A stretch of DNA of 64,000 bases, taken from NCBI RefSeq assembly GCF_003149085.1, contig NZ_QGDT01000004.1, positions 1 through 64,000 on the forward strand, written 5' to 3'. The notes under the pieces are model-generated. The model was not told the DNA's origin, did not search any database, and saw only the letters and a program-made list of their open reading frames with translations. Each line of letters begins with the position of its first letter. Position 1 is the stretch's first letter. Below, one piece after another: positions 4,684 to 25,007 of the stretch. This DNA is from Dyadobacter jejuensis (GTDB taxonomy: Bacteria > Bacteroidota > Bacteroidia > Cytophagales > Spirosomataceae). Position numbers and translations under genes: made by a program.

Positions 4684-4746
4684 AAAAATAGTATTATAAA
4701 TGCACATGAAAGTAGCAGACTGTGGAAATCCCAAAACTTAATTTTG
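4684..4746 (+). promoter_or_regulatory. Putative AraC-type activator site and promoter of the susC operon
   Basis: First half-site AAAAATAGTAT (core ATAGTAT at 4688-4694), second half-site ATGAAAGTA starting at 4706, exactly 18 bases after the first core. The AGTA elements are 21 bases apart. A perfect Bacteroidota -7 element TAATTTTG lies at 4739-4746, 33 bases after the start of the second half-site. There is no TTTG at the -33 position, which suggests an activator-dependent promoter. The same arrangement recurs at 20767 and 24511. Confidence 0.7.
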
Positions 4747-4785
4747 TAGAAACTTAAAATTATAAAACCTTATAAGCCTAATGTT

Positions 4786-7700
4786 ATGCAAAAGAAAATT
4801 TTATTATATCGTTTTCTTTGTAAGCCTGTTCTTTTTGTCCTTGCCTTACTGACGATTGCTGGTCAACCGGTTTCTGCCCAACAGGCAGGTCGGAGTATAT
4901 CTGGTCAGGTAATGGATGAAAACAACGAGCCGCTACCTGGAGTAAACATCCAATTGAAGGGGACTTTAATTGGTGCGAGTACCAATTCGAACGGAGACTA
5001 CAAGATCAATGTAGCTTCCGATGATGCTACATTGATCTTTTCATTTATTGGTTATGAAAGTCAAGAGATCGTAGTTGGCAATCGTTCTACAATCGACGTG
5101 TCCTTGGTGGCCGATGTATCGGAGCTTAAGGAACTCGTAGTGGTGGGGTATGGAAGCCAGTCGAGAGAGACGGTAACCACCTCCATTTCCAAGTTGGACA
5201 CGAAGGTGTTCGAAAATGTGACTTTTGCCAGTCCTGCCTCCGCTCTTCAAGGGACCATTTCCGGACTTCGGGTTCAGAGTACTTCTGGACAGCCCGGTGC
5301 TTCACCGCGGGTTATCCTACGGGGAGGGACTTCTATAGACAATCCGGACGGTTCCACTCCTTTATATGTAATCGATGGGGTAATCCGCTCGGACATGGAC
5401 AATATCAACACAGCGGATATTGAGTCCATTCAAGTGTTAAAAGATGCAGCCTCTACCTCTATATATGGTGCGAGGGCTTCTAACGGGGTAATTATCGTGG
5501 AGACTAAGTCGGGTAAAGTAGGTACTACCCAAGTGCGTTATAACTACAACCTTACCTCCTCAAAGGTGGGAAATACTTATGATTTGGCTGGTGGAAAGGA
5601 CTTTATCAAATTTATGCGGATGGGGATAGCTGCCAGTGGGGTGAAATCGCCTTCGGTGCTCGACTTCCTTACCCAAGCCAATGCCGGTGGTACAGGCAAC
5701 GACCTCACCAATAATACGGCTTTTACTACCATGTATTTGTCTCCAGACAATAGCTATTTGTTAGACCTGCCAGCCGACCAGTGGGGAGCCATGTGGGAAA
5801 CGACTCCCGATCCCCTGGATCCTACCAAAGATTTGATTTTCAAAGCCACTGATTTTCAGAAAACGGTTTTCCGTCAGGCATATACCCACGATCATAACTT
5901 GAATGTATCGGGTGGTACCGAAAAAGTAAAATATAGCATGGGCTTAGGCTACTTAAACAGCCAAGGTATTGCCATAAATACGGATTATAAAAGACTTACC
6001 CTGAATTTGAATGGGGATGTACAGGTTTCTAAAAAGCTAAACTTCTTTGGACGTCTGAATTATGCCAATGTAGACGATAACCAGGTTCCGAATGTAGGGG
6101 TAGTGTTTAAAAATAATATCAATACGGCCCAAACCTCTAAATACCAATTTGAGGATGGCAGTCTCGCTCCTGGACGTTTATTCACCAACGGTAACCCTGC
6201 TTATTATATTAGTCGCTACGACTCTGAGCGGATTCGCAACAATTATATGGTTGTGGTAGGTTCAAAACTGGATATACTTCCTGGTTTGACCTTTAGGCCA
6301 CAGCTCTCCTTAATCAATAATACCTTCTCGACTAGGAATTTCTTGAAATCCTATCTGAATGGTCCTTTGGTATTGAACGAAAACCGGGAATCCACTACCT
6401 CGCAGATTTCCCAGGTGCAACATCAGGCAGATGCCGTACTGAATTATTCCAAAACCTTTGGCAATAGCCATAACCTAGATGCTACACTCGGTTATTCTTA
6501 CTTTAAAACCTTCAATAAAGATTTGACGGCGGTGGGTAGAAATGCCGGTACCGACCTGATCCCCACTTTGAATGCTTCTGCTACACCTTGGAGCGTTACT
6601 GGATCCGAATCGGAGCAATTGCTATATGGTTATTTTGGTCGACTCAATTATAACTTCGAACAAAAATACCTTGTCACTGTCAATGCCCGTTACGATGGAG
6701 CGTCCAATCTTGGTGCCGATTATAAATGGGGTTTCTTTCCAGGGGTATCCTTGGGCTGGAACTTGCACCGTGAAGCTTTTTGGGATATGATGCCAGCGAG
6801 CATTTCTAATTTGAAGCTTCGTGGAAGTTACGGGGTCAATGGTAATATCAGCGGACTCGGAAACTATCAGGCTCAAGGATCTTACGCAGTAGGTGAGCGT
6901 TATAATGGAGCTGCGGCCATCTATAATACCGATTTGGCCAACCCTGCCTTGCAATGGGAGAAGTCCAAAACGCTAAACTTCGGGTTTGATCTAGGGTTGT
7001 TCCAAAACCGAGTGACGGCTGCGGTGGATGTTTATAGAAGAGTTACCGACAACTTGTTGACCAGCTTAGCCCTACCTCGTTCCACAGGTTTTACCAGCAT
7101 TCTTACCAATTTGGGGAGTCTAGAGAACAAAGGTTTAGATTTGGAAGTGAGTGCGCGTTTACTCCCAGCAACTTCGGATGTACAGTGGACTGCCGCCTTC
7201 AATGCCAGTTATGTAAAAATGAAAATCCTTCAATTGCCTGAAAATGGTATTGAGAATAATAGAATTGGTGGATTCAATGTATGGGACGAAGCCACAAACT
7301 CTTACCAGTGGAAAGGTGGGTTGCAAGAAGGGGGTACTATCGGCGATATGTATGCCTATAAGCAGCTGAGTATCTATGCTACTGACGAAGAGGCTGCGGC
7401 TGGTCCTGTGGATATGCTCGTAGTAGGTGCCGACAAAACCAAACATGGTGGCGACGTGAACTGGCAAGATACCGATGGGAATGGCATCATCGACAGCCAG
7501 GACCGCGTATATATGGGTAACCCTTATCCAACTTGGACCGGAGGACTTACCAACCGCCTGAACTACAAAGGATTTGGTTTTACCGTCCGCATGGACTATA
7601 CCACGGGTCATATGATCTATAACGAAACCAAAGCAAGGGTGTTAGGGAACTTCTCAGGACAGAATGCGATATCCGCTGCCGTGACCAGATCGTGGCAGAA

Positions 7701-8019
7701 CCAAGGGGATATCACCGATATACCTCGCTACTACTGGGCCGATCAGAATCAGAAATCTAACCTTTACAGGGGTAATTCTAACTATTACGAAAAAGGCGAT
7801 TTTCTATGCCTAAGGGAGATTTCATTGTCCTATATGTTGCCTGAAAGCATAGCCAACAAATTAAAAATGAGCAATGTGAGGTTTCATGCTACAGCCAATA
7901 ACCTAAAGTACTTTACCAAATTTACGGGTCTGAATCCCGAAGAAGGGGGTACCGATACGGGTCGTTTCCCAATGCCTAGAAACTTCATTTTTGGATTGCA
8001 ATTGACTCCTTCGTTTTAA
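4786..8019 (+). CDS. SusC/RagA-family TonB-dependent outer-membrane transporter
   Basis: Imports oligosaccharide-type ligands across the outer membrane together with the adjacent SusD partner. The 1077 residues comprise a signal peptide ending near AQQ (about residue 33), a carboxypeptidase-regulatory-like domain (about 38-115, SGQVMDENNEPLPGVNI), the TonB-dependent plug domain (about 125-240, with VVVGYGSQ, ALQGTISGLRVQ, PLYVIDGV and ASTSIYGARASNGVI), and a beta barrel ending in aromatic LQLTPSF. Start ATG at 4786. It is the first gene after the regulated promoter and is followed by susD after 29 bases. The transported substrate cannot be told from sequence. Confidence 0.95.
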   Translation: MQKKILLYRFLCKPVLFVLALLTIAGQPVSAQQAGRSISGQVMDENNEPLPGVNIQLKGTLIGASTNSNGDYKINVASDDATLIFSFIGYESQEIVVGNRSTIDVSLVADVSELKELVVVGYGSQSRETVTTSISKLDTKVFENVTFASPASALQGTISGLRVQSTSGQPGASPRVILRGGTSIDNPDGSTPLYVIDGVIRSDMDNINTADIESIQVLKDAASTSIYGARASNGVIIVETKSGKVGTTQVRYNYNLTSSKVGNTYDLAGGKDFIKFMRMGIAASGVKSPSVLDFLTQANAGGTGNDLTNNTAFTTMYLSPDNSYLLDLPADQWGAMWETTPDPLDPTKDLIFKATDFQKTVFRQAYTHDHNLNVSGGTEKVKYSMGLGYLNSQGIAINTDYKRLTLNLNGDVQVSKKLNFFGRLNYANVDDNQVPNVGVVFKNNINTAQTSKYQFEDGSLAPGRLFTNGNPAYYISRYDSERIRNNYMVVVGSKLDILPGLTFRPQLSLINNTFSTRNFLKSYLNGPLVLNENRESTTSQISQVQHQADAVLNYSKTFGNSHNLDATLGYSYFKTFNKDLTAVGRNAGTDLIPTLNASATPWSVTGSESEQLLYGYFGRLNYNFEQKYLVTVNARYDGASNLGADYKWGFFPGVSLGWNLHREAFWDMMPASISNLKLRGSYGVNGNISGLGNYQAQGSYAVGERYNGAAAIYNTDLANPALQWEKSKTLNFGFDLGLFQNRVTAAVDVYRRVTDNLLTSLALPRSTGFTSILTNLGSLENKGLDLEVSARLLPATSDVQWTAAFNASYVKMKILQLPENGIENNRIGGFNVWDEATNSYQWKGGLQEGGTIGDMYAYKQLSIYATDEEAAAGPVDMLVVGADKTKHGGDVNWQDTDGNGIIDSQDRVYMGNPYPTWTGGLTNRLNYKGFGFTVRMDYTTGHMIYNETKARVLGNFSGQNAISAAVTRSWQNQGDITDIPRYYWADQNQKSNLYRGNSNYYEKGDFLCLREISLSYMLPESIANKLKMSNVRFHATANNLKYFTKFTGLNPEEGGTDTGRFPMPRNFIFGLQLTPSF

Positions 8020-8048
8020 GAATTACTCAAAATTTAAAAAGTATTAAT

Positions 8049-9527
8049 ATGAAATCCATGATACGAAAACTAATGACAGCCGGTATGGCGGTTGTCATGT
8101 TCTCTGCCTGCACCGATGATCTAACCTTGACACCCATCAGTCAGATTACCAATACTTCATTTTGGAAGTCAGCCGAAGAAGCAGAGGGTGGACTCAACGG
8201 TATGTACGTTCGTTTGCGTACGCAAGCAGCAAACAATATGTTTGTTTGGGGCGAAGCTAGAAGTGAGATTTGGGCACAGAACTTCGGTTTTGACCCTTCT
8301 GCAAACTATTACGCCTTTGCCAACGACCTAAGCCAAGTAAACGCCGGTCCCGATTGGACCACCATGTATTCGGTAGTGCATGATGCCAACCTGATCATTA
8401 AATATGTGCCCGATATCTCGTTTCCTTCCGAATCGGAGAAGAATGAGATTCTAGCCCAGGCGTATGCCACAAGAGCCTTCGTTTATTTTACCATGAGCAA
8501 GGTATGGGGCGACCTTATCCTCATCACCGAACCCACAGAAGGTATTGAGCCCGATAAAATATATCAGGAGAGAGCCACTCAGGCAGAGGTTTTCGCTTTA
8601 ATAAAAGAAGATTTGGAACGCTCCTTGTCACTTTTTGATACTAACGAATTTTCTGAAGGTCGCATTAAATGGTCGGAGCCGGCTGTGAATGCCCTGAAAG
8701 CCGATGTGTACCTATGGTCTGGTAAGAAGCTGGGCGGAGGAGCCGCCGACTTTACCGAGGCCTTGGAGGCTATTTCTGAAGTAGAAAGTAGTGATGTAGA
8801 GCTATTAACAGATTTTAATGACATCTTTAGCTTCACCAATAAGGGCAATAAAGAAGTGATTCTTAGTGTTCGATTTGCGGAAGGGGAGTCCACTACCCGT
8901 ACTGTTTATGGTGGGGTTACCGCCTTGGCCTCGCCTACAGCTCCCTACACCGACCAGAGTGTTATCGATAAGTTATTACCTTATTCTGGTAAAAATGTTT
9001 ACTGGCAACTATCTTCTCTCGTAACCGATCAGTTTTCTGATGAGGACTCTAGGAAAGATGCTAGCTTTATTGAAGTAACACAGACTAGAGATGGGGTTAC
9101 GAGCCTGCTCTACAACATCGATCAGAAATGGCCAGGAGTGATCAGTGGTGGGGTACGGGTAATGTACGACGACTTTATTGTTTACCGCTATGCCGATGTA
9201 GTCCTGATGAAAGCAGAAGCTCAAAATGCCCTAGGACAAGACCCTTCGGAGGCTATCAACCTGATCAGAAAAAGAGCCTATGGCGAAAACTATGAGGCAC
9301 ATACCTTCGTGAGTAGTACGCAAGAAGAAAATGATGAGGTTATTCTACAAGAGCGACTCTTCGAATTCCTACAAGAAGGCAAGCGTTGGTACGACTTAGT
9401 ACGGTTCGACAAGGCCCTACAAAAGGTACCTTCTTTGGAAGGGAAGACTCAAAATGACCTACTTTTCCCATTAAGTGAGACGATCCTTAGTTTGGAGCCC
9501 CTTATTGAACAGAATCCTGGGTATTGA
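8049..9527 (+). CDS. SusD/RagB-family surface glycan-binding lipoprotein
   Basis: Caps the SusC barrel and binds the ligand at the cell surface. The 492 residues begin with a lipoprotein signal (lipobox FSAC, Cys about residue 21). The N-terminal SusD signature TNTSFWKSAEEAEGGLNGMY follows, then tetratricopeptide-like helices (AYATRAFVYFTMSKVWG) and the C-terminal RagB part (LIRKRAYG, ERLFEFLQEGKRWYDLVRF). Length is typical. It lies between susC and the propeller glycosidase-like gene, with spacings of 29 and 21 bases. Confidence 0.95.
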   Translation: MKSMIRKLMTAGMAVVMFSACTDDLTLTPISQITNTSFWKSAEEAEGGLNGMYVRLRTQAANNMFVWGEARSEIWAQNFGFDPSANYYAFANDLSQVNAGPDWTTMYSVVHDANLIIKYVPDISFPSESEKNEILAQAYATRAFVYFTMSKVWGDLILITEPTEGIEPDKIYQERATQAEVFALIKEDLERSLSLFDTNEFSEGRIKWSEPAVNALKADVYLWSGKKLGGGAADFTEALEAISEVESSDVELLTDFNDIFSFTNKGNKEVILSVRFAEGESTTRTVYGGVTALASPTAPYTDQSVIDKLLPYSGKNVYWQLSSLVTDQFSDEDSRKDASFIEVTQTRDGVTSLLYNIDQKWPGVISGGVRVMYDDFIVYRYADVVLMKAEAQNALGQDPSEAINLIRKRAYGENYEAHTFVSSTQEENDEVILQERLFEFLQEGKRWYDLVRFDKALQKVPSLEGKTQNDLLFPLSETILSLEPLIEQNPGY

Positions 9528-9548
9528 TTTTAATTAAATTGATTGCAA

Positions 9549-11009
9549 ATGTTTAAATTAAAAATTTCTGGATGGGTATTAGCCGCAACTATGATAGTTT
9601 TAAGTAGCTACAAAGGAGTGGTGCCCATCACAGAGGATACAGTTATTGAATTAGGAAGTAAGCGCGAGATTTTTGTCGATAAATTCTTGATTCAAGAGCT
9701 GAAAGGAGCCGAGCTCGTCATGAAGTCGCCTAGGGATGAGGGAGCTGTAATGGCTTTCAATGAGCCCTGGGAGACGAATGCCCCGGCATATATTACGATC
9801 CTAAAAGATACCGACCGGTACCGCGCCTATTATAGGGGCGGTACCCCCGGCAAAAATGGTCGAAGTATCGACAATACTTGCTATGCCGAGTCGCAGGATG
9901 GGATTGCCTGGGAAAAACCCATTTTGAATATGGTCTCCGTCAATGGTTCTAAAGAGAATAACGTTATTCTGGAAGAAATGCCTTTGACGCATAACTTTAG
10001 TCCATTTATTGATACCAATCCTTCAGCATCTGCAAGCCAAAAGTACAAGGCCTTCGGCGGAACGGATAGTTCCGGACTCATTCCCTTCGTTTCGGAAGAT
10101 GGAGTCCATTGGACCAAGCTTAGCCAGACGCCGGTGATTACCGACGGACTATTGGATTCCCAAAATGTCTCCTTTTGGTCCGAATCAGAGCAGGTGTATG
10201 TTTGCTACTTCCGTTCGTGGACGGGAGGAGGGGAGCTCGGCTACCGATCGGTAAGCAGGAGTACCTCTAAGGATTTCTTACACTGGACCAAGCCAGTAGA
10301 AATGTCCTATGGAGATACTCCCTTCGAGCATATTTATACCCAGCAGACCAGCCCTTATTTTAGGGCTCCACATATCTATATTGCGATTGGGTCCAGGTTT
10401 GTACCTCATCGTCAAATCGCTACCTTGGACCAACTCGAGAGGCTGCAAGTAGACCCTGGCCAGCATAAGGGACTTTCAGAGCCGTTTTTGATGAGCTCAC
10501 GTGGAGGTACTACCTACGACCGTACCTTTATGGAGGCCTATATTCGTCCGGCAGTGGGCCTCAACCATTGGTCGGCTCGTACCAACTACCCATCGCTGAA
10601 TGTAGTGCCGACAGGAGATAGTGAAATGTCGCTGTATGTTAATCAAGATTATGCCCAGCCTACCGGACATTTGCGCAGGTACTCTATGAGACTAGATGGT
10701 TTCAGTGCCCTCAATGCACCCTATGAAGGGGGGGCGATGATCACCAAGCCGTTTACCTTCGAGGGTAAGGAGTTGGAAATCAATTATGCTACCTCGGCAG
10801 TCGGCGAGATTCGCATCGCCATTCAAGATGAGCATGGGGAGGAAATTCCAGGTTTTTCTATGATAGAATGTGCGGAGCTAGTCGGCAATGAAACCGTAAG
10901 GACCGTGACCTGGAATGGGGAAAAAGATCTGTCCCAACTGTCGTCGAAACCGGTTCGTTTACATATTTATTTAAAGGATGCGGATCTCTATTCGATTCGC
11001 TTCAAATAA
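9549..11009 (+). CDS. Exported glycosidase-like protein, five-bladed-propeller type (copy 1)
   Basis: Begins with a signal peptide. The ORF opens with TTG at 9543, but ATG at 9549 gives MFKLKISGWVLAATMIVLSS and is preferred. The body (REIFVDKFLIQEL, PRDEGAVMAF, PAYITILKD, YRAYYRG, FSPFIDTNP, YKAFGG, LLDSQNVSFWSESEQVYVCYF) matches a family of exported proteins resembling clan GH-J/F beta-propeller hydrolases (GH32/GH43-like). The C-terminal 100 residues look like a beta-sandwich (LEINYATSAVGEIRIAIQD). I cannot name its catalytic residues or substrate. It is in the susCD operon and has a close paralogue at 11916-13367. Confidence 0.7.
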   Translation: MFKLKISGWVLAATMIVLSSYKGVVPITEDTVIELGSKREIFVDKFLIQELKGAELVMKSPRDEGAVMAFNEPWETNAPAYITILKDTDRYRAYYRGGTPGKNGRSIDNTCYAESQDGIAWEKPILNMVSVNGSKENNVILEEMPLTHNFSPFIDTNPSASASQKYKAFGGTDSSGLIPFVSEDGVHWTKLSQTPVITDGLLDSQNVSFWSESEQVYVCYFRSWTGGGELGYRSVSRSTSKDFLHWTKPVEMSYGDTPFEHIYTQQTSPYFRAPHIYIAIGSRFVPHRQIATLDQLERLQVDPGQHKGLSEPFLMSSRGGTTYDRTFMEAYIRPAVGLNHWSARTNYPSLNVVPTGDSEMSLYVNQDYAQPTGHLRRYSMRLDGFSALNAPYEGGAMITKPFTFEGKELEINYATSAVGEIRIAIQDEHGEEIPGFSMIECAELVGNETVRTVTWNGEKDLSQLSSKPVRLHIYLKDADLYSIRFK

Positions 11010-11017
11010 GATTGACC

Positions 11018-11677
11018 ATGAAAATTACTCATATTGTACCGCTTTTTTTGCTGCCCCTCCTATTTTCAATGATAAGAAATGAAGCGGCTTTTGAAGCCAA
11101 ATCTATAAAAATTGGGGATCAGGAATGGACGGCAGAAAATCTCGATGTGGCCAAATTCCGAAATGGCGACCCTATTCCTGAGGCTAGCACATTTGAGGAA
11201 TGGGAGCAGGCCTGCATAGACGGTTCACCAGCATGGTGCTACTATAATAACGATCCTGTCAAGTATAAGCAGATGGGGAAACTGTACAATTATTGGGCAG
11301 TGTCCGATAAAAGAAAACTCGCTCCTGAAGGCTGGCACGTGCCTACTGATGCCGAATGGATGAAGTTAGCCGAGCATTTGGGTGGTGAAAAATTGGCCGG
11401 TAAAAGTTTGAAATCGGCGAAGGGTTGGAAAAAATCGGGACAAGGTTCCAACAAAAGTGGTTTCAATGGCTTGCCGGCAGGTTATCGCAGTCATGAGAAG
11501 CCTTCCTACTATGGCGGACCATTCTTCGACATGGGAGCGGGGGCGTACTGGTGGAGCACTACCCGCTACTTAGTGGACAATAGTATCAGTCGCAAACTTT
11601 CCTACGACCATTCAGGACTTGAAAAAACGAGTTTTGTGATGACGGCAGGGCTCTCCGTACGACTGTTGAAGGACTAG
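11018..11677 (+). CDS. FISUMP-domain exported protein
   Basis: The 220-residue protein starts at ATG 11018 (the ORF extends to a TTG at 11012). After a signal peptide the whole chain is a Fibrobacter succinogenes major paralogous (FISUMP) domain: IGDQEWTAENLDVAKFRNGD, GKLYNYWAV, APEGWHVPTDAEWMKL, GFNGLPAGYRS, YWWSTT and AGLSVRLLKD. The fold resembles the formylglycine-enzyme/C-type-lectin group; its biochemical role is not established. It is 8 bases after the propeller protein gene, so it belongs to the same operon and probably acts at the cell surface with it. Confidence 0.85.
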   Translation: MKITHIVPLFLLPLLFSMIRNEAAFEAKSIKIGDQEWTAENLDVAKFRNGDPIPEASTFEEWEQACIDGSPAWCYYNNDPVKYKQMGKLYNYWAVSDKRKLAPEGWHVPTDAEWMKLAEHLGGEKLAGKSLKSAKGWKKSGQGSNKSGFNGLPAGYRSHEKPSYYGGPFFDMGAGAYWWSTTRYLVDNSISRKLSYDHSGLEKTSFVMTAGLSVRLLKD

Positions 11678-11717
11678 AGTTATCAGTAATTCTGGATGGA
11701 TGTTTTCTGAATAAAGG

Positions 11718-11770
11718 CAGGTGGGGTTAATGGGGCTAAGTCTATTCGCTACCATAGCCCACCTGTCCCT
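11718..11770 (+). terminator. Possible terminator or attenuating hairpin after the FISUMP gene
   Basis: CAGGTGGG (11718-11725) pairs with CCCACCTG (11758-11765), followed by TCCCTTTTA. An alternative inner stem GGGCTA/TAGCCC (11733-11738 with 11755-11760) competes with it. It could end or weaken the first part of the operon. The U-tract is weak. Confidence 0.4.
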
Positions 11771-11915
11771 TTTAGCCGTAAGTCTTTGAGGATGCTAGGA
11801 CCAGCGATTATTGTCGTATAATGATTAACAGCGTATTGTATATAAAACATGGAGCCTGTCGCAGGGCTAAAAGCACTACCATCCTAAGAAAGCGAAGTAT
11901 CACTTAACCTCGAAC

Positions 11916-13367: not shown

Positions 13368-13504
13368 TAAAAAGAGGGCTATGCTCTGAAGAATAGGCAG
13401 CTCATCAACTGAATAAACATTGAACAGCCCCATAGGAATATCCGCTTTGGGTAGGGGAGGTTCTGTCATAAAGCAATTTGTACGTTACTAGACTAGCTTG
13501 TATT

Positions 13505-14998: not shown

Positions 14999-15197
14999 CA
15001 GTTCGCATCTGTAGGTGCCAAGCTTTCGCAACTGTTGGGTACCATATTGGCCATTGGGTGCTTCGAGCATCATCGGAAGTGAGCCACTGCCTGCCTTCAT
15101 GGGGATGCCAAATATCGCTTGGCTCCCCACTTGGGTTCGATGGTTATGTTTAGGTGTTGATGCTGGGTTGCGCCAGTTAACTTTTTAAAGTGAGGAC

Positions 15198-15890: not shown

Positions 15891-16163
15891 ATGCATAGGC
15901 CTTGAAAGCGCCTGTTGATTCCCTATTATGCCCGAATGGACCCGTTTAAATACATCAAGATTCATAATAAATGGGCTATAGGACTTGAACTTGGCCTAAG
16001 ATTCCATTTCAATATCCGATCCAATAATTTGGCGGTCTGTTTAAATATTTTTAAGTAGACCGACTCCCTTCTCAATGAGCTGAAACTTAGGTGATTTGGA
16101 GAAGAGGTTTTTTCTGATTCCATTCTGTGCAAAATATCCGAGAACAAATATAATCCCTAAACG

Positions 16164-17399
16164 ATGTCGCAAATGTATATGAATCCATTCCCAATTCGAA
16201 GTCACTGGAGTGTCTTAGGCTTTGCTTATGGCTTGCTTTTTAGCTTTCTACCTGCTTTTGCCATGAGTGGTGAGGACGATAATCGATCGAAGAAAGAGGT
16301 ATCTTTAACACCCGCTATTAAGAAGATAAAGGATATCGTCATTTATAAGGACGATACCTATTTTTCAGCCTTCCCTTCTGTAATAAAACGACCGGATGGG
16401 GAATTGGTGGTGGCATTCAGAAGGGCTCCCGACCGTAAGATATTTGGAGAATCTCATACCAACCATGTAGATCCCAATAGTTATCTCGTGATGGTTCGAT
16501 CGAGGGACGGGGAGCAATGGAGCCCTACCCCCGAACTGCTCTATGCCCATCCTTTGGGTGGCTCGCAGGATCCCTGTTTATTACAGCTTCAGGATGGCTC
16601 GATCCTCTGTACGAGCTATGGCTGGGCATTTGTAAAGTCGGAAGTACGTCCTCATTTGAAACAGCCTAACTTTCAGGCGGGGGAGGCTACTTTTCTGGGT
16701 GGGTATTTGATGCGATCGACAGATGGTGGAGCCACCTGGAGCCAACCCATTTATCCCCCACATATCCAACCCGAAATAAACTTTTCGGCCGATGGTAAAC
16801 CACTTCCCGCTTATAACAGAGGGGCTCTTTGCGAAGGAAAGGACGGTCTTATTTACTGGATAGTCGCGGCGTCCGACTCAAATAGCCCCAAAAAAACCTC
16901 CAATCATCTCTTGGTCTCCGACGACAAAGGCCTTACCTGGCTTTATAAAAGCGTAGTGGCTATAGATAGCACTGCTTCTTTTAATGAGTCTTCGATTTAT
17001 CAGACACCCAAAGGAGACCTGGTTGGTTTTTTGAGGACTGCCCGAATGGATGGGCAAGCGTGCATCGCCCGGTCGACCGACGGAGGAGAAACCTTTAAAT
17101 GGCAAAAAATGGGATTTCAAGGCCATCCCTTAAATGTACTACGCTTACCCGACAACCGGGTGCTGCTGACCTATGGCTATCGCCAAAAACCATATGGCAT
17201 ACGGGCCCGGATCTTAAATTCGGAATGCACCGATTTTGCCACTGCCCAGGAGTTCGTGTTGCGGGATGACGGTGGCAGTAGCGATTTGGGCTATTCCTGG
17301 CCTGTGCAGCTCGACAACGAAAGGGTATTGGTAACCTATTACTTCAATAAAGACAATGGTACCAGACATATAGCCGGCACCATTATAGAAATTAAATAA
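16164..17399 (+). CDS. Exported BNR/Asp-box sialidase-like protein
   Basis: A 411-residue protein with a signal peptide (hydrophobic SVLGFAYGLLFSFLPAFA). Three Asp-box repeats are visible: RSTDGGATWSQP, SDDKGLTWLYKS and RSTDGGETFKW. An early PDGELVVAFRRAP strand and late GYSWPVQLDNERVLVTYYF fit the six-bladed propeller of GH33-like exo-sialidases. Typical sialidase arginines could include the one in VAFRRAP, but a FRIP motif is not clear, so sialidase activity is not assured; many such proteins act on other sugars. It probably works outside the cytoplasm, with the propeller proteins, on the substrate of the SusCD pair. Confidence 0.75.
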   Translation: MSQMYMNPFPIRSHWSVLGFAYGLLFSFLPAFAMSGEDDNRSKKEVSLTPAIKKIKDIVIYKDDTYFSAFPSVIKRPDGELVVAFRRAPDRKIFGESHTNHVDPNSYLVMVRSRDGEQWSPTPELLYAHPLGGSQDPCLLQLQDGSILCTSYGWAFVKSEVRPHLKQPNFQAGEATFLGGYLMRSTDGGATWSQPIYPPHIQPEINFSADGKPLPAYNRGALCEGKDGLIYWIVAASDSNSPKKTSNHLLVSDDKGLTWLYKSVVAIDSTASFNESSIYQTPKGDLVGFLRTARMDGQACIARSTDGGETFKWQKMGFQGHPLNVLRLPDNRVLLTYGYRQKPYGIRARILNSECTDFATAQEFVLRDDGGSSDLGYSWPVQLDNERVLVTYYFNKDNGTRHIAGTIIEIK

Positions 17400-17487
17400 C
17401 CCACTAAAAAGTATAAAAGATTTAAACGTATGTGCGGTGAGGAAACGAGGGACAGCCGATAGTACTCCCCATTTAAATGATGAATTA

Positions 17488-18228
17488 ATGGATTTAAAAG
17501 CATTGAAAGGTGAGTTTGACCGGAATGGGTACGTTATGCTATCACAGTTTATTTCTGAAGATCGTTCACGGGAATTACAAGCTAAAGTAGAGGAGTTTAT
17601 TAGAGTGTCGGTTCCAACAATGCCGCCCGAACATGTCTTCTATGAGAATGATCAGGACAATACGAGCTTAAAACAACTTTTTCATCTGTCTGATTATGAT
17701 CCCTATTTCCATCAGTTGATTCATGGAAGTATTTTTGAAGAACTGGCCGAGGTGCTGTTGGGGGAAAAGATGAAAAAACGGTTTGTGGAGTATTTTAACA
17801 AACCTGCCCGTTCGGGTAAACCCACTCCCCCTCATCAAGACGGCTATTATTTTAAATTGACTCCACCTCAAGCCATTACTTTTTGGATCCCATTAGAAGA
17901 AGTCAATCAAGAAAATGGCTGTTTGCGATACGTAAAAGGCTCACATTTGCATGGCCTTCGGCCTCATGGACGCACTGCTACGCTCGGTTTCTCTCAGGGG
18001 ATTACCGATTATGGTATTCCAAGCGACCTCACCTATGAAGCCCCTATGCCCGTCGACGTTGGCGATGTATTGGTACATCATGCCATGACCATCCATAGGG
18101 CCGATCAAAATAAGAGCCTGACCCGCTCTCGACGGGTTCTGGCTTTGGTTTATTTCGGAGCGTCGGCCGTGGAGGATATCGTATCGAAAGCAGATTATCA
18201 AAAGGAACTATTAGCCGCAAAAAAATAA
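17488..18228 (+). CDS. Phytanoyl-CoA dioxygenase (PhyH)-family Fe(II)/2-oxoglutarate oxygenase
   Basis: The frame opens at GTG 17437; ATG 17488 (MDLKALKGEFDRNGYV) places the family's typical start correctly and is preferred. The iron-binding triad is visible: His and Asp in PPHQDGYYF and the distal His in HHAMTIHRADQN. RSRRVLALVYF supplies the 2-oxoglutarate-binding arginine region. PhyH enzymes hydroxylate small molecules, using oxygen and 2-oxoglutarate, and act in the cytoplasm. It is followed by an SDR after 19 bases, suggesting hydroxylation followed by oxidation of the new alcohol. Actual substrate unknown. Confidence 0.85.
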   Translation: MDLKALKGEFDRNGYVMLSQFISEDRSRELQAKVEEFIRVSVPTMPPEHVFYENDQDNTSLKQLFHLSDYDPYFHQLIHGSIFEELAEVLLGEKMKKRFVEYFNKPARSGKPTPPHQDGYYFKLTPPQAITFWIPLEEVNQENGCLRYVKGSHLHGLRPHGRTATLGFSQGITDYGIPSDLTYEAPMPVDVGDVLVHHAMTIHRADQNKSLTRSRRVLALVYFGASAVEDIVSKADYQKELLAAKK

Positions 18229-18247
18229 ATCGCACGATTAGGATACT

Positions 18248-19036
18248 ATGTCAATAAGTAAAGAAATTTTTAGTCTGAGGGACCAGGTGATATGGGTATT
18301 AGGAGGTGCAGGACACCTAGGCCAACCGACCTCCTTGCTGCTCGAACAATTGGGGGCTAGGGTCGTCTGTATGGACCTTGGTAATCGGGCACAGCGATTC
18401 GTAGAGCGGCTTACGGAAGGACAAAACATCGTTCCTGAATCATTTGATCTGAGAGAACAGCATTTAATAGATGAATTTGTTGCGCAGCAAACTGTTAAAC
18501 ACGGGATTCCCAATGGACTTGTCAACCTGTCGTTTAGCGCTTCTGGTAAGACTTTGGAAGAATTGACTGCCTCAGATTTTGACCTGGCAAACAGTCTTTC
18601 GTTGACATCTACTTTTCTTTTTACCAGGGCGGTGGGGCAACGGATGGCGACTCATGACGGTGGTAGCTTGGTGCTATTTTCGAGTATGTATGGCTCGGTC
18701 TCTCCAGATCCCTCGATATACAGCCCACCTCTCCATAAAAACCCGATTGAATACGGCGTCGCTAAGGCGGGGTTAGAGCAAATGGTCCGTTATCTGGCTG
18801 TGCATTGGGGAACAAAAAAAGTTCGTTGCAATGCCATTGCACCGGGAGCTTTTCCGAATCCTTCGGTTCAAAATCAACAACCCGACTTTATTGACAAACT
18901 TTCCTCGAAGTCACCTTTAGGTAGGATTGGGCAACCGGAGGAAATCGCTGGTACGGTAGCATTTCTGCTCTCTGCGGCCTCTACCTATATTACCGGTCAG
19001 ACCATCGCCGTAGATGGTGGGTGGAAATGCTGGTAG
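18248..19036 (+). CDS. Short-chain dehydrogenase/reductase (SDR)
   Basis: A 262-residue classical SDR. The Rossmann glycine motif is GGAGHLGQP, a little unlike the usual TGxxxGIG. The NNAG region is replaced by VNLSFSASG. The catalytic Ser lies in LFSSMYG, and the YxxxK pair in [12 protein letters not shown] is intact. PG-motif CNAIAPGAF and C-terminal [12 protein letters not shown] are typical of sugar-alcohol or gluconate dehydrogenases. Cytoplasmic, NAD(P)-dependent. Lies 19 bases after the PhyH gene and 60 bases before the symporter. Confidence 0.88.
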
Positions 19037-19096
19037 GCTGTAACCGCATTGAATCATTATTAATTTTTATCTAGCTTTTTGCTAATTCCAACGCTT

Positions 19097-20611
19097 ATGT
19101 TTACTGTTTTCTTGAATAATTTATTAGGACAACGACTAGAAGTGCTCGACTGGGCCATCATTATCTTTTATGCCCTGGGAATGATCTTAATAGGTTGGTT
19201 TTATAGCCGAAAAATCAAGACAAGCGAGGACTATCTGCTGGGGGGACGGAAGATGAATTCTACTGCAATAGGTATTTCATTGTTTGCTACCTTGTTAAGT
19301 ACGCTTTCGTATTTGTCGTACCCTGGCGAAATGATCAAACACGGTCCTGCCGTTTTGTTATCCGTATTGGCATTTCCTCTGATTTATTTTATTGCGGGCT
19401 ATTGGTTAATTCCTAGAATAATGGCCCTGAACGTTACCAGTGCCTATGAAATACTAGAGTTACGTTTTGGGCTAAGCATTCGGATGTTTGCAATCTTTAT
19501 GTTTTTAGTGCTTCGTTTTTTTTGGATGGCCACTATTATTTATGTTACCGTTAATATAGCTTTAAGGGCTATTATCCCATTCGAAGAGGCCTACGTGCCC
19601 TTAATTGGCTTGCTATTGATGGTAATAACGATCATTTATACGACGATGGGGGGGCTTAAGGCGGTGGTGGTTACCGATGTAATTCAAACCTGTGTATTTT
19701 TGATCGGGGCTATCGTTAGTATCCTTGTTGTGGTTATTAATTTGGGCTCATTTGCCGAAATAATACCCCTGGAGTGGCCAGCGCACTGGGATGAATTGCA
19801 ATGGGAATTGGATACCTCTAAGCGGAGCACCTTGGGGAATATCTTCTTAGCTACTACCGTTTGGTACGTATGTACTACGGGCTCCGATCAGCTGGCCATT
19901 CAGAGGTATCTTTCTACCGAAAATGTCGCCACAGCCCGGAAGTCTTTCCGGATATCCCTATATTCCAATGTACTTGCCAATATCTTGTTAGCCATAGTGG
20001 GGCTAGCCATGGTGGCTTATTTTACCAAAAACCAAGCCCTCATGGAAGCAGGCCAAACCATTTATGGGCAGGCCGACCAATTGTTTCCCAAATTCATACT
20101 CATAGGGTTACCCACAGGAATGTCGGGTTTAGTAATTGCCGGTTTATTATCGGCGGCTATGTCGAGCATGTCTTCAGGCCTGAATTCCGTTTCCACAGTC
20201 CTATCCGAAGATATATTTAACAGGTTTAGAACAAGAAAATTAAGTGCTTCTGCTGCACTAAAAGAAGTGAAGTGGATTTCCTATGGTACCGGATTTGTCG
20301 TCATTTTATTGAGCTTATTCATTGCCAATGTATCGGGCAATCTGTACGATGTCATTATGAAGGTGGTCAATCTGCTGGTGGCACCTTTGTTTGTCTTGTT
20401 TTTTATGGCCCTGTTCATTCCATTTGCTACCGAAAGAGCCACCCTATTAGCTGGCTTAGCCTCGGTAGCGGCGGCTGTGGCGATTGCCTTTTACGAGATA
20501 TTTGGAATCACCGTCTTTTGGATCATGCCTGGCTCTTTGGTGGTAGGGATAGGGACTGGCGTATTATTGAGTTGGCTCGATGTGACCCTAAGTAAGCATG
20601 GCAATGGATAG
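19097..20611 (+). CDS. Sodium:solute symporter (SSS family)
   Basis: About 504 residues with 13-14 hydrophobic segments. SSS hallmarks are present: the TSEDYLLGGRKM loop near residue 40, SLFATLLSTLSYLSYPGEM, the GGLKAVVVTDVIQ segment, and GLVIAGLLSAAMSSMSSGLNSVSTVLSEDIF. The frame runs back to a TTG at 19079; ATG 19097 is chosen. It should bring the monomeric product of the SusCD system across the inner membrane with sodium. Relatives in such clusters carry sialic acid, sugars or sugar acids. It is the last gene before a 263-base gap containing the next regulated promoter. Confidence 0.93.
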   Translation: MFTVFLNNLLGQRLEVLDWAIIIFYALGMILIGWFYSRKIKTSEDYLLGGRKMNSTAIGISLFATLLSTLSYLSYPGEMIKHGPAVLLSVLAFPLIYFIAGYWLIPRIMALNVTSAYEILELRFGLSIRMFAIFMFLVLRFFWMATIIYVTVNIALRAIIPFEEAYVPLIGLLLMVITIIYTTMGGLKAVVVTDVIQTCVFLIGAIVSILVVVINLGSFAEIIPLEWPAHWDELQWELDTSKRSTLGNIFLATTVWYVCTTGSDQLAIQRYLSTENVATARKSFRISLYSNVLANILLAIVGLAMVAYFTKNQALMEAGQTIYGQADQLFPKFILIGLPTGMSGLVIAGLLSAAMSSMSSGLNSVSTVLSEDIFNRFRTRKLSASAALKEVKWISYGTGFVVILLSLFIANVSGNLYDVIMKVVNLLVAPLFVLFFMALFIPFATERATLLAGLASVAAAVAIAFYEIFGITVFWIMPGSLVVGIGTGVLLSWLDVTLSKHGNG

Positions 20612-20766
20612 CTCTGGCTAGGCACTCGTTTGACGACCTTTACCTTTAGGAAGCCCCAATGTGCCCCATTCATAGAGCGCTTTAACTCGATCGTGTAGAG
20701 GAATAGGAAGTATTTCGATAGAATATTAGCCTGTGCTTATAAGTTGAGGGCTTAGCTCTAGAGGTG

Positions 20767-20832
20767 GTGAAAGATAGTATCAGTTTTAAGGATAAAAGTA
20801 ATAGTCCGGCTGGGTTTTGGTGCTTATATTTG
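20767..20832 (+). promoter_or_regulatory. Putative AraC-type activator site and promoter of the aldolase operon
   Basis: First half-site core ATAGTAT at 20774-20780 inside GTGAAAGATAGTATCAGT (20767-20784), an 18-mer also found at 31756-31773. The second half-site ATAAAAGTA is at 20792-20800, again 18 bases after the first core start, and the AGTA elements are 21 bases apart. The -7 element TATATTTG is at 20825-20832, 33 bases after the second half-site start. No -33 TTTG. Confidence 0.72.
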
Positions 20833-20874
20833 GTATTATAAAACATGAAGAAAAAGTCCCTAAACCAATAATCA

Positions 20875-21678
20875 ATGCGTAAAAGTCGAGTGCTTCAAAA
20901 ACTACGAGCAGGAGAGGTGGTAAGCTGCCTAAAGATAAATCTGTCGGACCCAAGGGTGTCAGAAATAGCGGCGATCACCGGGTTCGACTGTGTATGGGCA
21001 GACCAGGAACATATCGGTTCCGACTGGTCTATTTTGGCCGGCAATGTATGGGCCACCAAATGCCATGATACCGATCTGCTGGTGCGTGTTCCCCGAGGGA
21101 GCTATAGCGATTATGTACGCCCACTAGAGCTCGACGCCACCGGAATTATGGTGCCTCATATTATGAATTTGGAAGAAGCGAAAAAGGTAGTGGAGGTGAC
21201 CCGCTTTCATCCTATTGGCCGACGGCCGATCGATGGGGGAAATGCGGACGGTTCCTATACCGCTCTGGATTTTAATGAATACCTCGTACAGGCGAATGAG
21301 CAACGCTTCGTGATCCTGCAAATAGAAGATCCTGAGCCTTTGGCTCAATTAGACGAGATTGCCGCCTTAGAGGGGTATGACATGTTGTTTTTTGGTCCTG
21401 GCGATTTCAGTCAAGGTATAGGAAGTCCAGGCCAATGGGATCACCCCGACCTTGTAGCTGCACGTAAGAAAGTTGCGGAAGCAGCACGGAAGCATGGCAA
21501 GTTTGCAGGAACCGTAGGTGGCCCCGGTAATCTTCAGGAGCTGATTGACATGGGCTATCAGTTTGTGAGTGTGGGGGCCGATGTGGTAGGGCTCAAAAAC
21601 TACTGTCAGGATTTACTGAAGGCCTTCGACCCGCAAAGCGCTGGTAAGGCGGCTACCTCGTACCTAGAAAACGAATGA
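20875..21678 (+). CDS. HpcH/HpaI-family class II aldolase
   Basis: Cleaves or forms a 2-keto-(3-deoxy) acid, typically giving pyruvate plus an aldehyde, in the cytoplasm. The 267 residues show the family layout: DCVWADQEH, RVPRGSYSDYVRPLE, GIMVPHIMNLEEA, QIEDPEPL with the metal-binding Glu, and FFGPGDFSQGIG with the metal-binding Asp. Start ATG 20875 is preceded by A-rich DNA. It is the first gene after the second regulated promoter and 13 bases before the aldo/keto reductase gene. Its place in the cluster suggests that the pathway passes through a keto-deoxy acid. Confidence 0.9.
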   Translation: MRKSRVLQKLRAGEVVSCLKINLSDPRVSEIAAITGFDCVWADQEHIGSDWSILAGNVWATKCHDTDLLVRVPRGSYSDYVRPLELDATGIMVPHIMNLEEAKKVVEVTRFHPIGRRPIDGGNADGSYTALDFNEYLVQANEQRFVILQIEDPEPLAQLDEIAALEGYDMLFFGPGDFSQGIGSPGQWDHPDLVAARKKVAEAARKHGKFAGTVGGPGNLQELIDMGYQFVSVGADVVGLKNYCQDLLKAFDPQSAGKAATSYLENE

Positions 21679-21691
21679 AATACCTGAAGTA

Positions 21692-22648
21692 ATGAAAAAG
21701 AGAATATTAGGCAGAACGGGTCTGGAGGTTTCTGAAGTGGCCTTTGGAGGCGTCGAAATAGGATTGCCTTATGGTATTGGCGTGGCCGACAAAAATGATA
21801 TGTTGTCTGAAAACCAGGCCATAAGCCTACTACATGAGGCCATGGCCAATGGAATCAATTTCTTCGATACCGCTAGGATGTACGGGGAGAGTGAGCAAAT
21901 AATGGGTAAAGCCTTTGGCGATCGGAGAGAAGAGGTTATTCTAGCGACCAAATGCCGGCATTTTAGGAATCAGCAGGGGCAGTTGCTACCAGAGGCGGAA
22001 CTTAAAAAATTTATTACGAACTCCCTAAAAGAGAGTCTGGAGGCCTTAAAAACCGATTATATAGATGTATTTATGTTGCATCAGGCCGACCAGGAAATAC
22101 TACAGAGCAACCTGATTGCAGATACTTTCCAGGAGTTGAAGCAACAAGGGGTTATTCGAGCCACTGGAGCTTCTACCTATTTGGCCTCCGAAACGGCACT
22201 AGGCATAGAACGGGGGCATTGGGATGTCATCCAGTTGCCATTCAATTTGATGGATCAGCGCCATGCTGTCAATTTTCAAGAAGCTCAGTCTCAGGGGGTA
22301 GGGTTGGTGGTTAGATCGGTATTATTAAAAGGACTTTTAAGTGACCGTGGTAAGGATTTACACCCTAAATTGGTAGAAGTTGAACGTCATATTGGGAAAT
22401 ACCAGGAGTTTATTGCTGCCGACTTTCCCGATTTACCCACCCTGGCCACTCGTTTTGCATTGTCCTTTGACACTATCTCATCGGTACTGGTGGGGATCGA
22501 TAAAACCGAATACTTGTATACAGCATTAGCCACTGCCAACGGGAAGTATATGGATCGGCCTACCTTGGTAAAGGCTATGGAGGCGGCCTTTCCGGATCCC
22601 AATTTTTTGAATTTACCCTATTGGGACAAAATGGGCTGGTTAAAATAA
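21692..22648 (+). CDS. Aldo/keto reductase
   Basis: A 318-residue AKR with LGRTGLEVSEVAFGG at the N-terminus, INFFDTARMYGESE (catalytic Asp and Tyr), EVILATKCR (catalytic Lys) and DVFMLHQAD (catalytic His). The C-terminus has the expected NADPH-binding region, although the pattern there (SSVLVGIDKTEYL) is slightly different. It reduces or oxidises an aldehyde or sugar carbonyl in the cytoplasm. Co-transcribed with the aldolase gene (13 bases) and the Gfo/Idh gene (47 bases). Confidence 0.9.
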   Translation: MKKRILGRTGLEVSEVAFGGVEIGLPYGIGVADKNDMLSENQAISLLHEAMANGINFFDTARMYGESEQIMGKAFGDRREEVILATKCRHFRNQQGQLLPEAELKKFITNSLKESLEALKTDYIDVFMLHQADQEILQSNLIADTFQELKQQGVIRATGASTYLASETALGIERGHWDVIQLPFNLMDQRHAVNFQEAQSQGVGLVVRSVLLKGLLSDRGKDLHPKLVEVERHIGKYQEFIAADFPDLPTLATRFALSFDTISSVLVGIDKTEYLYTALATANGKYMDRPTLVKAMEAAFPDPNFLNLPYWDKMGWLK

Positions 22649-22695
22649 CGATTAGAAACCATAAAGAACAGTAGGCTTCGCCTGCTGGATGCTAA

Positions 22696-23619
22696 ATGAA
22701 AACGATTAAAATAGGAATCATAGGAATGAGCCCGGGCAATGCCCACCCCTATTCGTGGTCGGCCATTGTCAATGGTCACTTCGATGGAGAAGAAATTTCA
22801 CGTGCAGGCTACCCGGCCGTATCGGCCTATTTGGAGGCCAATCGCGATACCATTGGACTAAGCGGCGCTCAGGTAACGCATATATGGACCCAAGATCGGG
22901 CAGTATCCGAGCGCATTGCGATGGCAACCAATATCGCCACGGTAGTCGAGAAAATGGAAGAAATGATTGGTCAGGTCGACGCCGTGCTTTTGGCGCGCGA
23001 TGACCCTGAAAATCATAAGGCTATGGCTCAGCCCTTCATAGAAGCGGATGTTCCTATCTTCATCGATAAGCCCTTGGCCTATTCTACTGAGGACTTGAAG
23101 TGGTTTTCGGAGCAAAATGCCCAAGGGAAGTTTATCATGTCTTGCTCCTCGATGCGCTACGCTGGCGAATGCCGTACGGCTCGGCAAGAGTTGGCAGGCT
23201 TAGGAAAGTTACATCTGGTGACTGCTGTAGGCAAAAAAGATTGGAAAAAATATGGGGTCCACCTGCTAGAGGGGTTGTTCGGAATATTGGACGACCCCAA
23301 AGCAAGTATGGTGCGGCACTTGGGAGCACTCGATAAAGAAATCGTTCAGCTACAGCTCGAAAACGGACCCGATGTTACGCTCCATTTATACAATCAAATA
23401 GGTGTTACGTTTCAAATCTCCCTATTTGGTGAACAAGGGTGGAAGCTGGTAGATATCAGAAACTCTTATGCTATGTTCAGGGATAATCTGATCGAGTTTA
23501 TCAGGTCGGTAGAGGAGGGGAACCCCCGCCTGCCCTTCGAAAAAACGGCTCATATTATGGAAATTATCATCGCTGCCCATCAGAGCCGGGAGCAAGGAGG
23601 CGTCGCTATCAGTCTCTAA
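22696..23619 (+). CDS. Gfo/Idh/MocA-family oxidoreductase
   Basis: A 307-residue protein with an N-terminal Rossmann domain. The nucleotide-binding stretch is IGIIGMSPGNAHPYSW, a variant of GxGxxG. VDAVLLARDDPENHKAMAQP is followed by the signature DKPLA, which holds the conserved Lys. The C-terminal half has WKKYGVHLLEGLFG, with the usual catalytic-type His. Members oxidise sugar or inositol hydroxyls with NAD(P). It is shorter than typical (330-400 residues). Transcribed with the upstream aldolase and AKR genes. Confidence 0.85.
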   Translation: MKTIKIGIIGMSPGNAHPYSWSAIVNGHFDGEEISRAGYPAVSAYLEANRDTIGLSGAQVTHIWTQDRAVSERIAMATNIATVVEKMEEMIGQVDAVLLARDDPENHKAMAQPFIEADVPIFIDKPLAYSTEDLKWFSEQNAQGKFIMSCSSMRYAGECRTARQELAGLGKLHLVTAVGKKDWKKYGVHLLEGLFGILDDPKASMVRHLGALDKEIVQLQLENGPDVTLHLYNQIGVTFQISLFGEQGWKLVDIRNSYAMFRDNLIEFIRSVEEGNPRLPFEKTAHIMEIIIAAHQSREQGGVAISL

Positions 23620-23720
23620 AATAGGTGGTTTGTGCCGCCTTGGATGCTTTAAATATTAAAATATAATAGAAAACACATTTAACGATAGGCCGGGTGGAAT
23701 ACCGTCGGCCCCAATGGCTT

Positions 23721-24500
23721 ATGAATGTAAAGCAACTCTTTAGTTTAAAAGGAAAGGTGATTGTAGTAACCGGGGGGTCGGGCAATTATGGTCAATGTAT
23801 TGTAGAGGGGTTGGCAGAAGCCGACGCCACCGTGATTACGACTTCCAGGAGGCTGGAATCAGCCCTGAAAACGGCTCATCACTTTAGAGGGAAAGGCCTA
23901 GATGTTACGGCTATGGAGGTGGACCAGGCCGAGGCAGAATCAGTCGAACGATTGAGTGGAAAAATTAGGGAGGTATATGGCCGACTCGACGGCTTCGTCA
24001 ACAACGCTGTGTCTCGACCTATGAAGGGTTATGGGGCCCCCATTGCGGAGTTCGACGAATCCATGAAAACCAATGCCACGGGGATGGTCAACCTGTTGCG
24101 TCAAATGACGGAGCTAATCGCCGCCAGTGGAGGTGGAAGTGTCATTAATATCGCTTCTATGATGGGAATGTTTGGGCCAGACCTAAGCAATTATGAAGGT
24201 ACTGAGAATATGGGTGACCTGCCCCCCGATTATTTCTTTCATAATGCGGGGCTGATTAACCTTAACCGATATATGGCCAAAATGAATAGAGGTAAAAACG
24301 TCCGGTTCAATTGTATCAGTCCTGGAGGGCTTTTTAATAATCAACCTGAGGTATTTGTACGGAATTACTGTAAAAAGGTTCCTTTGAATCGAATGGCTAA
24401 TCAGGATGATATAAAGGGCCTGGTAGTATTGCTGGCCTCAGAGGCTGGAGCGTATATTAACGGGGAAAACATATTGATGGATGGGGGGATGAATGCTTAA
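23721..24500 (+). CDS. SDR-family protein with altered catalytic Lys
   Basis: The frame opens at GTG 23694; ATG 23721 (MNVKQLFSLKGKVIVVTGGS) is the natural start. TGGSGNYGQ binds the cofactor, VNNAVSRP replaces NNAG, and the Ser is in NIASMMG. In the position of YxxxK the sequence reads YFFHNAGLI, so the Lys appears to be Asn while Tyr is kept. The insertion GPDLSNYEGTENMGDLPPD precedes it. The C-terminus (GAYINGENILMDGGM) is normal. If the alignment is right, the enzyme works by a modified mechanism or has lost redox activity. Last gene before the third regulated promoter. Confidence 0.82.
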   Translation: MNVKQLFSLKGKVIVVTGGSGNYGQCIVEGLAEADATVITTSRRLESALKTAHHFRGKGLDVTAMEVDQAEAESVERLSGKIREVYGRLDGFVNNAVSRPMKGYGAPIAEFDESMKTNATGMVNLLRQMTELIAASGGGSVINIASMMGMFGPDLSNYEGTENMGDLPPDYFFHNAGLINLNRYMAKMNRGKNVRFNCISPGGLFNNQPEVFVRNYCKKVPLNRMANQDDIKGLVVLLASEAGAYINGENILMDGGMNA

Positions 24501-24510
24501 AAATGGTTTT

Positions 24511-24575
24511 AAAAAATAGTATTAGGAATCCATATAAAAGTAGGAGAATTGAAGTGTGGTATAAAAGTACTTTTG
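24511..24575 (+). promoter_or_regulatory. Putative AraC-type activator site and promoter of the ridA operon
   Basis: First half-site core ATAGTAT at 24516-24522, second half-site ATAAAAGTA at 24534-24542, 18 bases after the first core start, AGTA elements 21 bases apart. The -7 element TACTTTTG is at 24568-24575, 34 bases after the second half-site start. An extra ATAAAAGTA at 24561-24569 forms the palindrome AAAAGTACTTTT overlapping the -7 element. No -33 TTTG. Confidence 0.72.
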
Positions 24576-24612
24576 TAAATCAAGTTATTAATAAAATTAT
24601 ATTTTGTTTTTT

Positions 24613-24996: not shown

Positions 24997-25007
24997 GTTT
25001 CGAAACT

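What the first reader, a model, noticed from the sequence alone, without database searches (positions are those of the whole stretch)
4684..24575. A shared bipartite site defines an AraC-type regulon across the catabolic cluster
Seen in sequence: at three promoters (4684-4746, 20767-20832, 24511-24575) ATAGTAT is followed at exactly 18 bases by ATRAAAGTA. The AGTA cores are 21 bases apart and a perfect TAnnTTTG lies 33-34 bases further on. None has a -33 TTTG, while the unrelated fabG promoter does. Direct repeats two helical turns apart are known for AraC-family activators (AraC I1-I2), and an AraC-type gene ends the cluster. Inference: one regulator switches on susCD, the aldolase operon and the ridA operon together.
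Basis: partly seen in the sequence, partly recalled or inferred. Interest (0 to 1): 0.82.

Follow-up and report, generated by a model that had tools for sequence, protein, structure and literature searches.

The report
AraC regulon of a catabolic cluster
Three operons of one breakdown pathway in a Dyadobacter-type bacterium share a conserved two-part DNA switch that is very probably bound by the AraC-family regulator encoded beside them; it is a clear new example of a well-known kind of gene control.

Summary
ATAGTAT-N11-ATRAAAGTA occurs exactly three times in the 5.76-Mb genome, all at the reported promoters. A profile built only from other genomes' sites ranks the same three first (E 8.9e-13, 1.5e-9, 9.2e-7; next 0.0138). 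Sites recur before susC, aldolase and ridA orthologs of related clusters, with TAnnTTTG 51 or 52 bases on. They track the AraC ortholog: of 150 genomes of the family, 18 of 18 with it have a site at E <= 1e-8; of 132 without it, none reaches 1e-4 and four have one weaker hit. Sites persist where the cluster is rearranged or split between contigs. Most relatives also have a site just upstream of araC; the window keeps a degraded copy at 31763-31789. No site has a -33 TTTG (0 of 31); the downstream half-site sits there. Best reading: an AraC-family activator on a 21-bp-period direct repeat, class-II type, with probable autoregulation. Binding, activation, inducer and substrate are untested. This site architecture is already described for AraC-type regulators of Bacteroides, so it is a new member of a known kind.

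The parts
4688..4714 (+). bipartite site 1, before susC
   Evidence: held-out profile E 8.9e-13
4739..4746 (+). TAnnTTTG (-7 element) of the susC promoter, 51 bases from the site start
4786..20611 (+). first gene run: susC, susD, FISUMP, sialidase-like propeller, PhyH, SDR, SSF symporter and others; one operon or more
   Evidence: operon limits inferred
20774..20800 (+). bipartite site 2, before the HpcH/HpaI aldolase gene
   Evidence: held-out profile E 9.2e-7
20825..20832 (+). TAnnTTTG of the aldolase promoter, 51 bases from the site start
20875..24500 (+). aldolase gene run: HpcH/HpaI aldolase, aldo-keto reductase, Gfo/Idh/MocA, SDR
   Evidence: operon inferred
24516..24542 (+). bipartite site 3, before ridA
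   Evidence: held-out profile E 1.5e-9
24568..24575 (+). TAnnTTTG of the ridA promoter, 52 bases from the site start
24604..30771 (+). ridA gene run: RidA, 3HCDH-type dehydrogenase, class-III aminotransferase, second 3HCDH, M19 dipeptidase-like, ceramidase-N-like
   Evidence: operon inferred
30787..31683 (-). AraC-family regulator, 298 aa, proposed to bind the sites
   Evidence: co-occurrence
31763..31789 (+). degraded fourth site upstream of araC, pointing away from it, without a -7 element in register; second half altered
   Evidence: PWM 24.9 against a maximum of 16.2 in 30 Markov sequences of 64 kb; profile E 0.0254; read

Best explanation
The AraC-family protein encoded at 30787-31683 binds, as a dimer, two direct half-sites (about RATAGTAYCAG and AAAAGTARCAG) 21 bp, i.e. 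two helical turns, apart on one face of the DNA. The downstream half-site covers the place where a -33 TTTG would lie, so the bound protein stands in for the missing -33 element and recruits RNA polymerase to TAnnTTTG 51-52 bases from the start of the site (class-II-type activation). With its inducer, probably a pathway intermediate sensed by the cupin-like N-terminal domain, it turns on the susCD run, the aldolase run and the ridA run together. A further site just upstream of araC, present in most relatives and half-degraded here, probably serves autoregulation. Shown: the sites, spacing, conservation, genome-wide specificity and co-occurrence with the gene. Inferred: binding, dimer, activation, inducer, autoregulation.
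For: Exact pattern 3 of 3 in the cluster genome-wide, control 0. Profile from 28 foreign sites ranks these three first. In 14 related loci, sites (PWM above 11) precede susC orthologs in 9 of 9 loci where the upstream DNA was held, HpcH in 9 of 10 and ridA in 9 of 11; 41 of 53 matches have TAnnTTTG at exactly 51 or 52 bases, the other 12 lie directly upstream of araC. Genus: 13 of 13 genomes with the ortholog have a site at E <= 9.1e-7. Family: 18 of 18, E <= 1e-8, of which 15 gave no site to the model. Rearranged clusters keep sites at araC-adjacent operons, and in G016 the susC and aldolase operons with sites lie on another contig than araC. The HTH part is more conserved than the N-terminal part in 22 of 23 orthologs, equal in one. 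0 of 31 sites have a -33 TTTG. Fold: AraC-type DNA-binding domain, and RhaR/AraC regulatory domains for the N-terminal part.
Against: Genomes without araC also lack the pathway (M19 ortholog at 74% or more in 21 of 198 genomes, 20 of these with araC), so co-occurrence alone does not single out this protein. Second copies of the cluster lack some sites: none above 11 before HpcH or ridA in G027b, nor before ridA in G022b. Of 22 loci with AraC at 51-64% identity, six hold no match above 14, including two of three Sphingobacterium-type loci. Four genus genomes and four family genomes without the ortholog have one weaker hit each. The model of the regulator is of moderate confidence (mean pLDDT 75.9). 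No binding or expression data.
Confidence: 0.86

Rival explanations
1. The sites are bound by a different regulator encoded elsewhere (a paralogous AraC-type or a hybrid two-component protein) that always accompanies the pathway; the linked araC has another role.
For: The genome has many AraC-type paralogs (50 first-look candidates, 12 scored and matched), and pathway and araC are lost together, so co-occurrence cannot separate them.
Against: araC stays linked to sites through rearrangements; a site lies upstream of araC in 12 of 14 related loci; the first recognition helix of the orthologs (TxFCNFFKEQ) differs from paralogs (such as SAFSRYFKKR); the paralogs are present in genomes without sites.
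Confidence: 0.08
2. The linked AraC binds the sites but represses, keeping polymerase off until the inducer appears.
For: AraC-type proteins can repress (recalled); the araC-proximal site has no -7 element in register and could be a repression site.
Against: The site lies upstream of the -7 element at a near-fixed distance and the promoters lack a -33 box, as expected for activator-dependent promoters rather than repressed strong ones.
Confidence: 0.05
3. The shared motif is chance, or a remnant of duplicated promoter DNA, without regulatory meaning.
Against: Held-out profile, family-wide co-occurrence, and conservation limited to the half-sites and the -7 element while the bases between them vary.
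Confidence: 0.01

Closest known systems
AraC-family L-rhamnose regulators of Bacteroides, Bacillales and Enterococcus (PMC3870299; passages seen)
   Same: Stand-alone AraC-family regulators of a catabolic cluster; predicted sites are direct repeats of 21-bp periodicity; the B. thetaiotaomicron one is a shown activator
   Different: Half-site sequence and the genes controlled differ; orthology to RhaR was not tested
AraC-type hybrid two-component (HTCS) regulons of Bacteroides thetaiotaomicron (PMC3878776; passages seen)
   Same: Direct repeats (16+5, 12+9 and 14+6 bp, i.e. [quoted passage not shown]
   Different: HTCS proteins carry a periplasmic sensor, kinase and receiver; this regulator is 298 aa with none of these
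CgrA of Zobellia galactanivorans, carrageenan regulon (PMC5698469; passages seen)
   Same: AraC-family positive regulator of a Bacteroidota catabolic cluster with operons elsewhere in the genome
   Different: No operator described in the passages seen; other substrate
E. coli AraC at araI1-I2 (recalled)
   Same: Two direct half-sites two helical turns apart, the downstream one next to the -35 region; activator
   Different: Different promoter type and half-site sequence; no distant looping site was looked for here

Membership tests
AraC/XylS family regulator | C-terminal AraC-type double helix-turn-helix | tested here: met
   PF12833 E 1.6e-20 and PF00165 E 3e-11, both above cut-off; DNA-binding-domain folds 3oou and 3lsg matched
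AraC/XylS family regulator | N-terminal cupin-like regulatory domain | tested here: inconclusive
   Cupin_2 below cut-off (E 0.03); fold matches to RhaR (6.2e-5) and AraC (1.5e-4) regulatory domains on a moderate-confidence model
AraC/XylS family regulator | Direct-repeat operator of about 21-bp period beside the promoter | tested here: met
AraC/XylS family regulator | Binds the operator and activates with an inducer | not testable with these tools
   needs footprint and expression data
Bacteroidota hybrid two-component system (HTCS) | Periplasmic sensor, histidine kinase and receiver fused to the AraC domain | tested here: not met
   298 aa; Pfam finds only the HTH domains above cut-off
Bacteroidota housekeeping promoter (consensus recalled) | -7 element TAnnTTTG | tested here: met
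   perfect at all three sites and at 41 of 53 foreign matches
Bacteroidota housekeeping promoter (consensus recalled) | -33 element TTTG, 16-22 bases before the -7 element | tested here: not met
   0 of 31 sites with TTTG, 2 of 31 with TTG

The most novel reading that the evidence does not exclude
One AraC-family regulator, conserved across several Bacteroidota lineages, governs an undescribed pathway for an unusual acidic or amino sugar handled by sialidase-like propeller proteins, at promoters that have lost the -33 box and depend wholly on the regulator. The near-invariant 51-52 base spacing would then be a general rule for how AraC-type activators meet the Bacteroidota sigma factor.
Probability: 0.2. 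Interest if true: 0.6.

Novelty: new member of a known kind. Interest (0 to 1): 0.37.

Why it matters
It gives a sharp, testable operator for one of the many stand-alone AraC regulators of environmental Bacteroidota and ties together the genes of an unassigned pathway, including the family of the solved but uncharacterised protein Dfer_1899 (5hx0). The fixed spacing and missing -33 box would make it a handy model for activator-dependent transcription in this phylum.

Tried and rejected
Relaxing the pattern to 3 mismatches in the own genome: counts do not exceed the reversed control, so no further own-genome members are claimed. The one-mismatch hit at C6:300969 and the profile hit at C17:4931 (E 0.0138) lie in fetched stretches in which tblastn placed no gene of the cluster; I treat them as background and did not annotate them further.

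A site before the 506-aa gene (13478), where G033, G035 and G039 have one in the corresponding stretch, was looked for; none scores above 11 in the window (stretch read).

The substrate could not be settled. The sialidase-like fold, HpcH/HpaI aldolase relatives, SDRs, RidA and the aminotransferase suggest an acidic or amino sugar. Of the 20 proteins scanned against NCBIfam, only SusC, RidA (TIGR00004) and the SSF symporter (TIGR00813) reached a cut-off, all for broad families. G136, with an M19 ortholog but no araC match of ortholog strength, could not be judged: its contig is 3,019 bases.

Literature: the searches listed no paper that, by title or start of abstract, treats a regulon of this cluster; the library holds open-licence papers only. 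PMC12125979 passages concern a Vibrio regulator of other build.

Full report
OBSERVATION. In the whole 5.76-Mb assembly the exact pattern occurs three times, all here and all on the + strand; the reversed control occurs never; about 0.012 is expected from base composition. Because the pattern was drawn from these three sites, I built a sequence profile (R1) from 28 sites of other genomes only. Against the own genome it returns these three first, E 8.9e-13, 1.5e-9 and 9.2e-7, then 0.0138 for an unrelated place and 0.0254 for a fourth, degraded site at 31757 beside araC. The remark on the -33 box also holds: 0 of 31 sites (28 foreign, 3 own) have TTTG there, 2 have TTG, while the promoter at 55222 has TTTG.

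CLUSTER. The gene run holds susC, susD, a FISUMP protein, a sialidase-like propeller, PhyH, an SDR and an SSF symporter after site 1; an HpcH/HpaI aldolase, aldo-keto reductase, Gfo/Idh/MocA and SDR after site 2; ridA, two 3HCDH-type dehydrogenases, a class-III aminotransferase, an M19 dipeptidase-like and a ceramidase-N-like protein after site 3; and the AraC gene on the other strand at the end. Three cluster proteins (9543, 11916, 13478), and the 202-aa one before susC, have no Pfam hit at E 0.001. The propeller matches solved Dfer_1899 of Dyadobacter fermentans (profile E 1.7e-207; fold). AraC is the only regulator Pfam finds in the cluster.

CONSERVATION. I took 14 related loci: 13 from 11 genus genomes (G022 and G027 have two each) and G071; G032, on a 10.7-kb contig, was looked at apart. 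tblastn placed the cluster genes, and a PWM trained on 51 foreign sites gave 53 matches above 11. Of these, 41 have TAnnTTTG at exactly 51 (29) or 52 (12) bases from the site start; 11 of the 12 at 52 stand before ridA, or before the 3HCDH gene where ridA was not placed. The other 12 have no TAnnTTTG in range and all lie directly upstream of araC. All 53 are on the strand of the cluster genes. By gene: susC 9 of 9 loci where the upstream DNA was held (in G022b it was cut off), HpcH 9 of 10 (missing in G027b; weak, 17.4, in G071), ridA 9 of 11 (missing in G022b and G027b). Fifty-one of the 53 trained the PWM, so this part is description; the held-out tests are the window, the distant loci and the family search.

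DISTANT LOCI. Among 22 loci whose AraC is 51-64% identical (L104-L125: Cyclobacterium, Lunatimonas, Lunatibacter, Pleomorphovibrio, Sphingobacterium and MAGs of several groups), 13 hold a match above 30 and 16 a match above 14; six hold none above 14 (L104, L106, L108, L119, L121, L122). Control loci, 248,258 bases, gave 2 above 14 and 0 above 30; one known match above 14 lies in a place covered by two of these loci (L014, L190). G185, of another family of the order, also has sites, though its araC reads in two pieces.

CO-OCCURRENCE. Genus, 48 genomes: 13 of 13 with the ortholog have a hit at E <= 9.1e-7; of 35 without it, 31 have none at E <= 0.01 and four have one each: 1.8e-6 (G042), 2.3e-4, 0.006, 0.008. 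G042 keeps a fragment of araC (residues 2-62, 87% identical; L126) with the araC-proximal site beside it. Family, 150 genomes: 18 of 18 with the regulator (E <= 1e-100) have a site at E <= 1e-8; of 132 without, 128 have none at E <= 0.001 and four have one each, 1.7e-4 to 9.1e-4. Fifteen of the 18 gave no site to the model. Caution: loss of the regulator goes with loss of the pathway (M19 ortholog at 74% or more in 21 of 198 genomes, 20 of them with araC), so co-occurrence alone does not single out this protein. Fisher p for 13/13 against 0/35 is 5e-12, or 1e-8 if the four weak hits count; the genomes are related, so these are only a guide.

REARRANGEMENT. In G063, G089 and G115 araC stands between susC and ridA, and each side has a site at offset 51. 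In Spirosoma profusum (L100) sites stand before ridA, susC and the propeller gene. In G016 the susC and aldolase genes, with sites, lie on another contig than araC. In G202, G210, G218 and G232 (genus g17) sites on other contigs precede an open frame of about 469 aa; the two I scanned (G210, G202) are BNR_2 proteins, the propeller class of the cluster. No match of that protein was found in the own genome.

MECHANISM. The regulator has an AraC-type double HTH and a fold-level match of its N-terminal part to RhaR and AraC regulatory domains, on a model of moderate confidence. The HTH part is more conserved than the N-terminal part in 22 of 23 orthologs and equal in one. The operator is a direct repeat of 21-bp period. 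With the -7 element at offset 51 and the downstream half-site reaching to about offset 31, that half-site covers the place of a -33 box, which is missing: the geometry of class-II activation (recalled knowledge of AraC-type activators). The araC-proximal site, present in 12 of 14 related loci and altered in its second half in the window, points away from araC and has no -7 element in register; autoregulation is the likely role but inferred.

KNOWN OR NEW. Direct repeats of 20-21 bp period are described for AraC-type HTCS regulators of Bacteroides (PMC3878776, passages), and the 21-bp period for stand-alone AraC-family rhamnose regulators (PMC3870299, passages). An AraC-family activator of a catabolic cluster in Zobellia is known (PMC5698469, passages). 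The searches listed no report on this cluster's regulon. The finding is real and well supported, but a new member of a known kind; its interest lies in the sharp spacing, the missing -33 box and the unassigned pathway.

Noticed in passing
window 35221-36420: HD domain plus PycTM (Pycsar effector) domain protein next to a 792-aa protein (32842-35220) without a Pfam hit; possibly a defence-related pair.
   Followed up: no
window 16164-17399: Propeller protein closely matches the solved but uncharacterised Dfer_1899 (5hx0); its predicted fold is sialidase-like.
   Followed up: partly
L204, L205, L206, L207: In four genomes of genus g17 a strong site on another contig precedes an open frame of about 469 aa; the two scanned (L204, L207) are BNR_2 proteins, suggesting regulon members in trans.
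   Followed up: partly
L186 (G042) and L126: Only residues 2-62 of the regulator are found, with the araC-proximal site still beside them: a relic of the regulon.
   Followed up: partly
G022 and G027 (L147-L149, L153-L158, L161-L163): Two araC copies each, with the cluster genes divided between two loci.
   Followed up: partly
window 31763-31789: The araC-proximal site, present in 12 of 14 related loci, has an altered second half here, so control of araC may differ in this species.
   Followed up: partly
G000:C8:201031-202101: A second M19 dipeptidase-like gene, 62% identical to that of the cluster; genus genomes without the cluster carry a relative of it.
   Followed up: no
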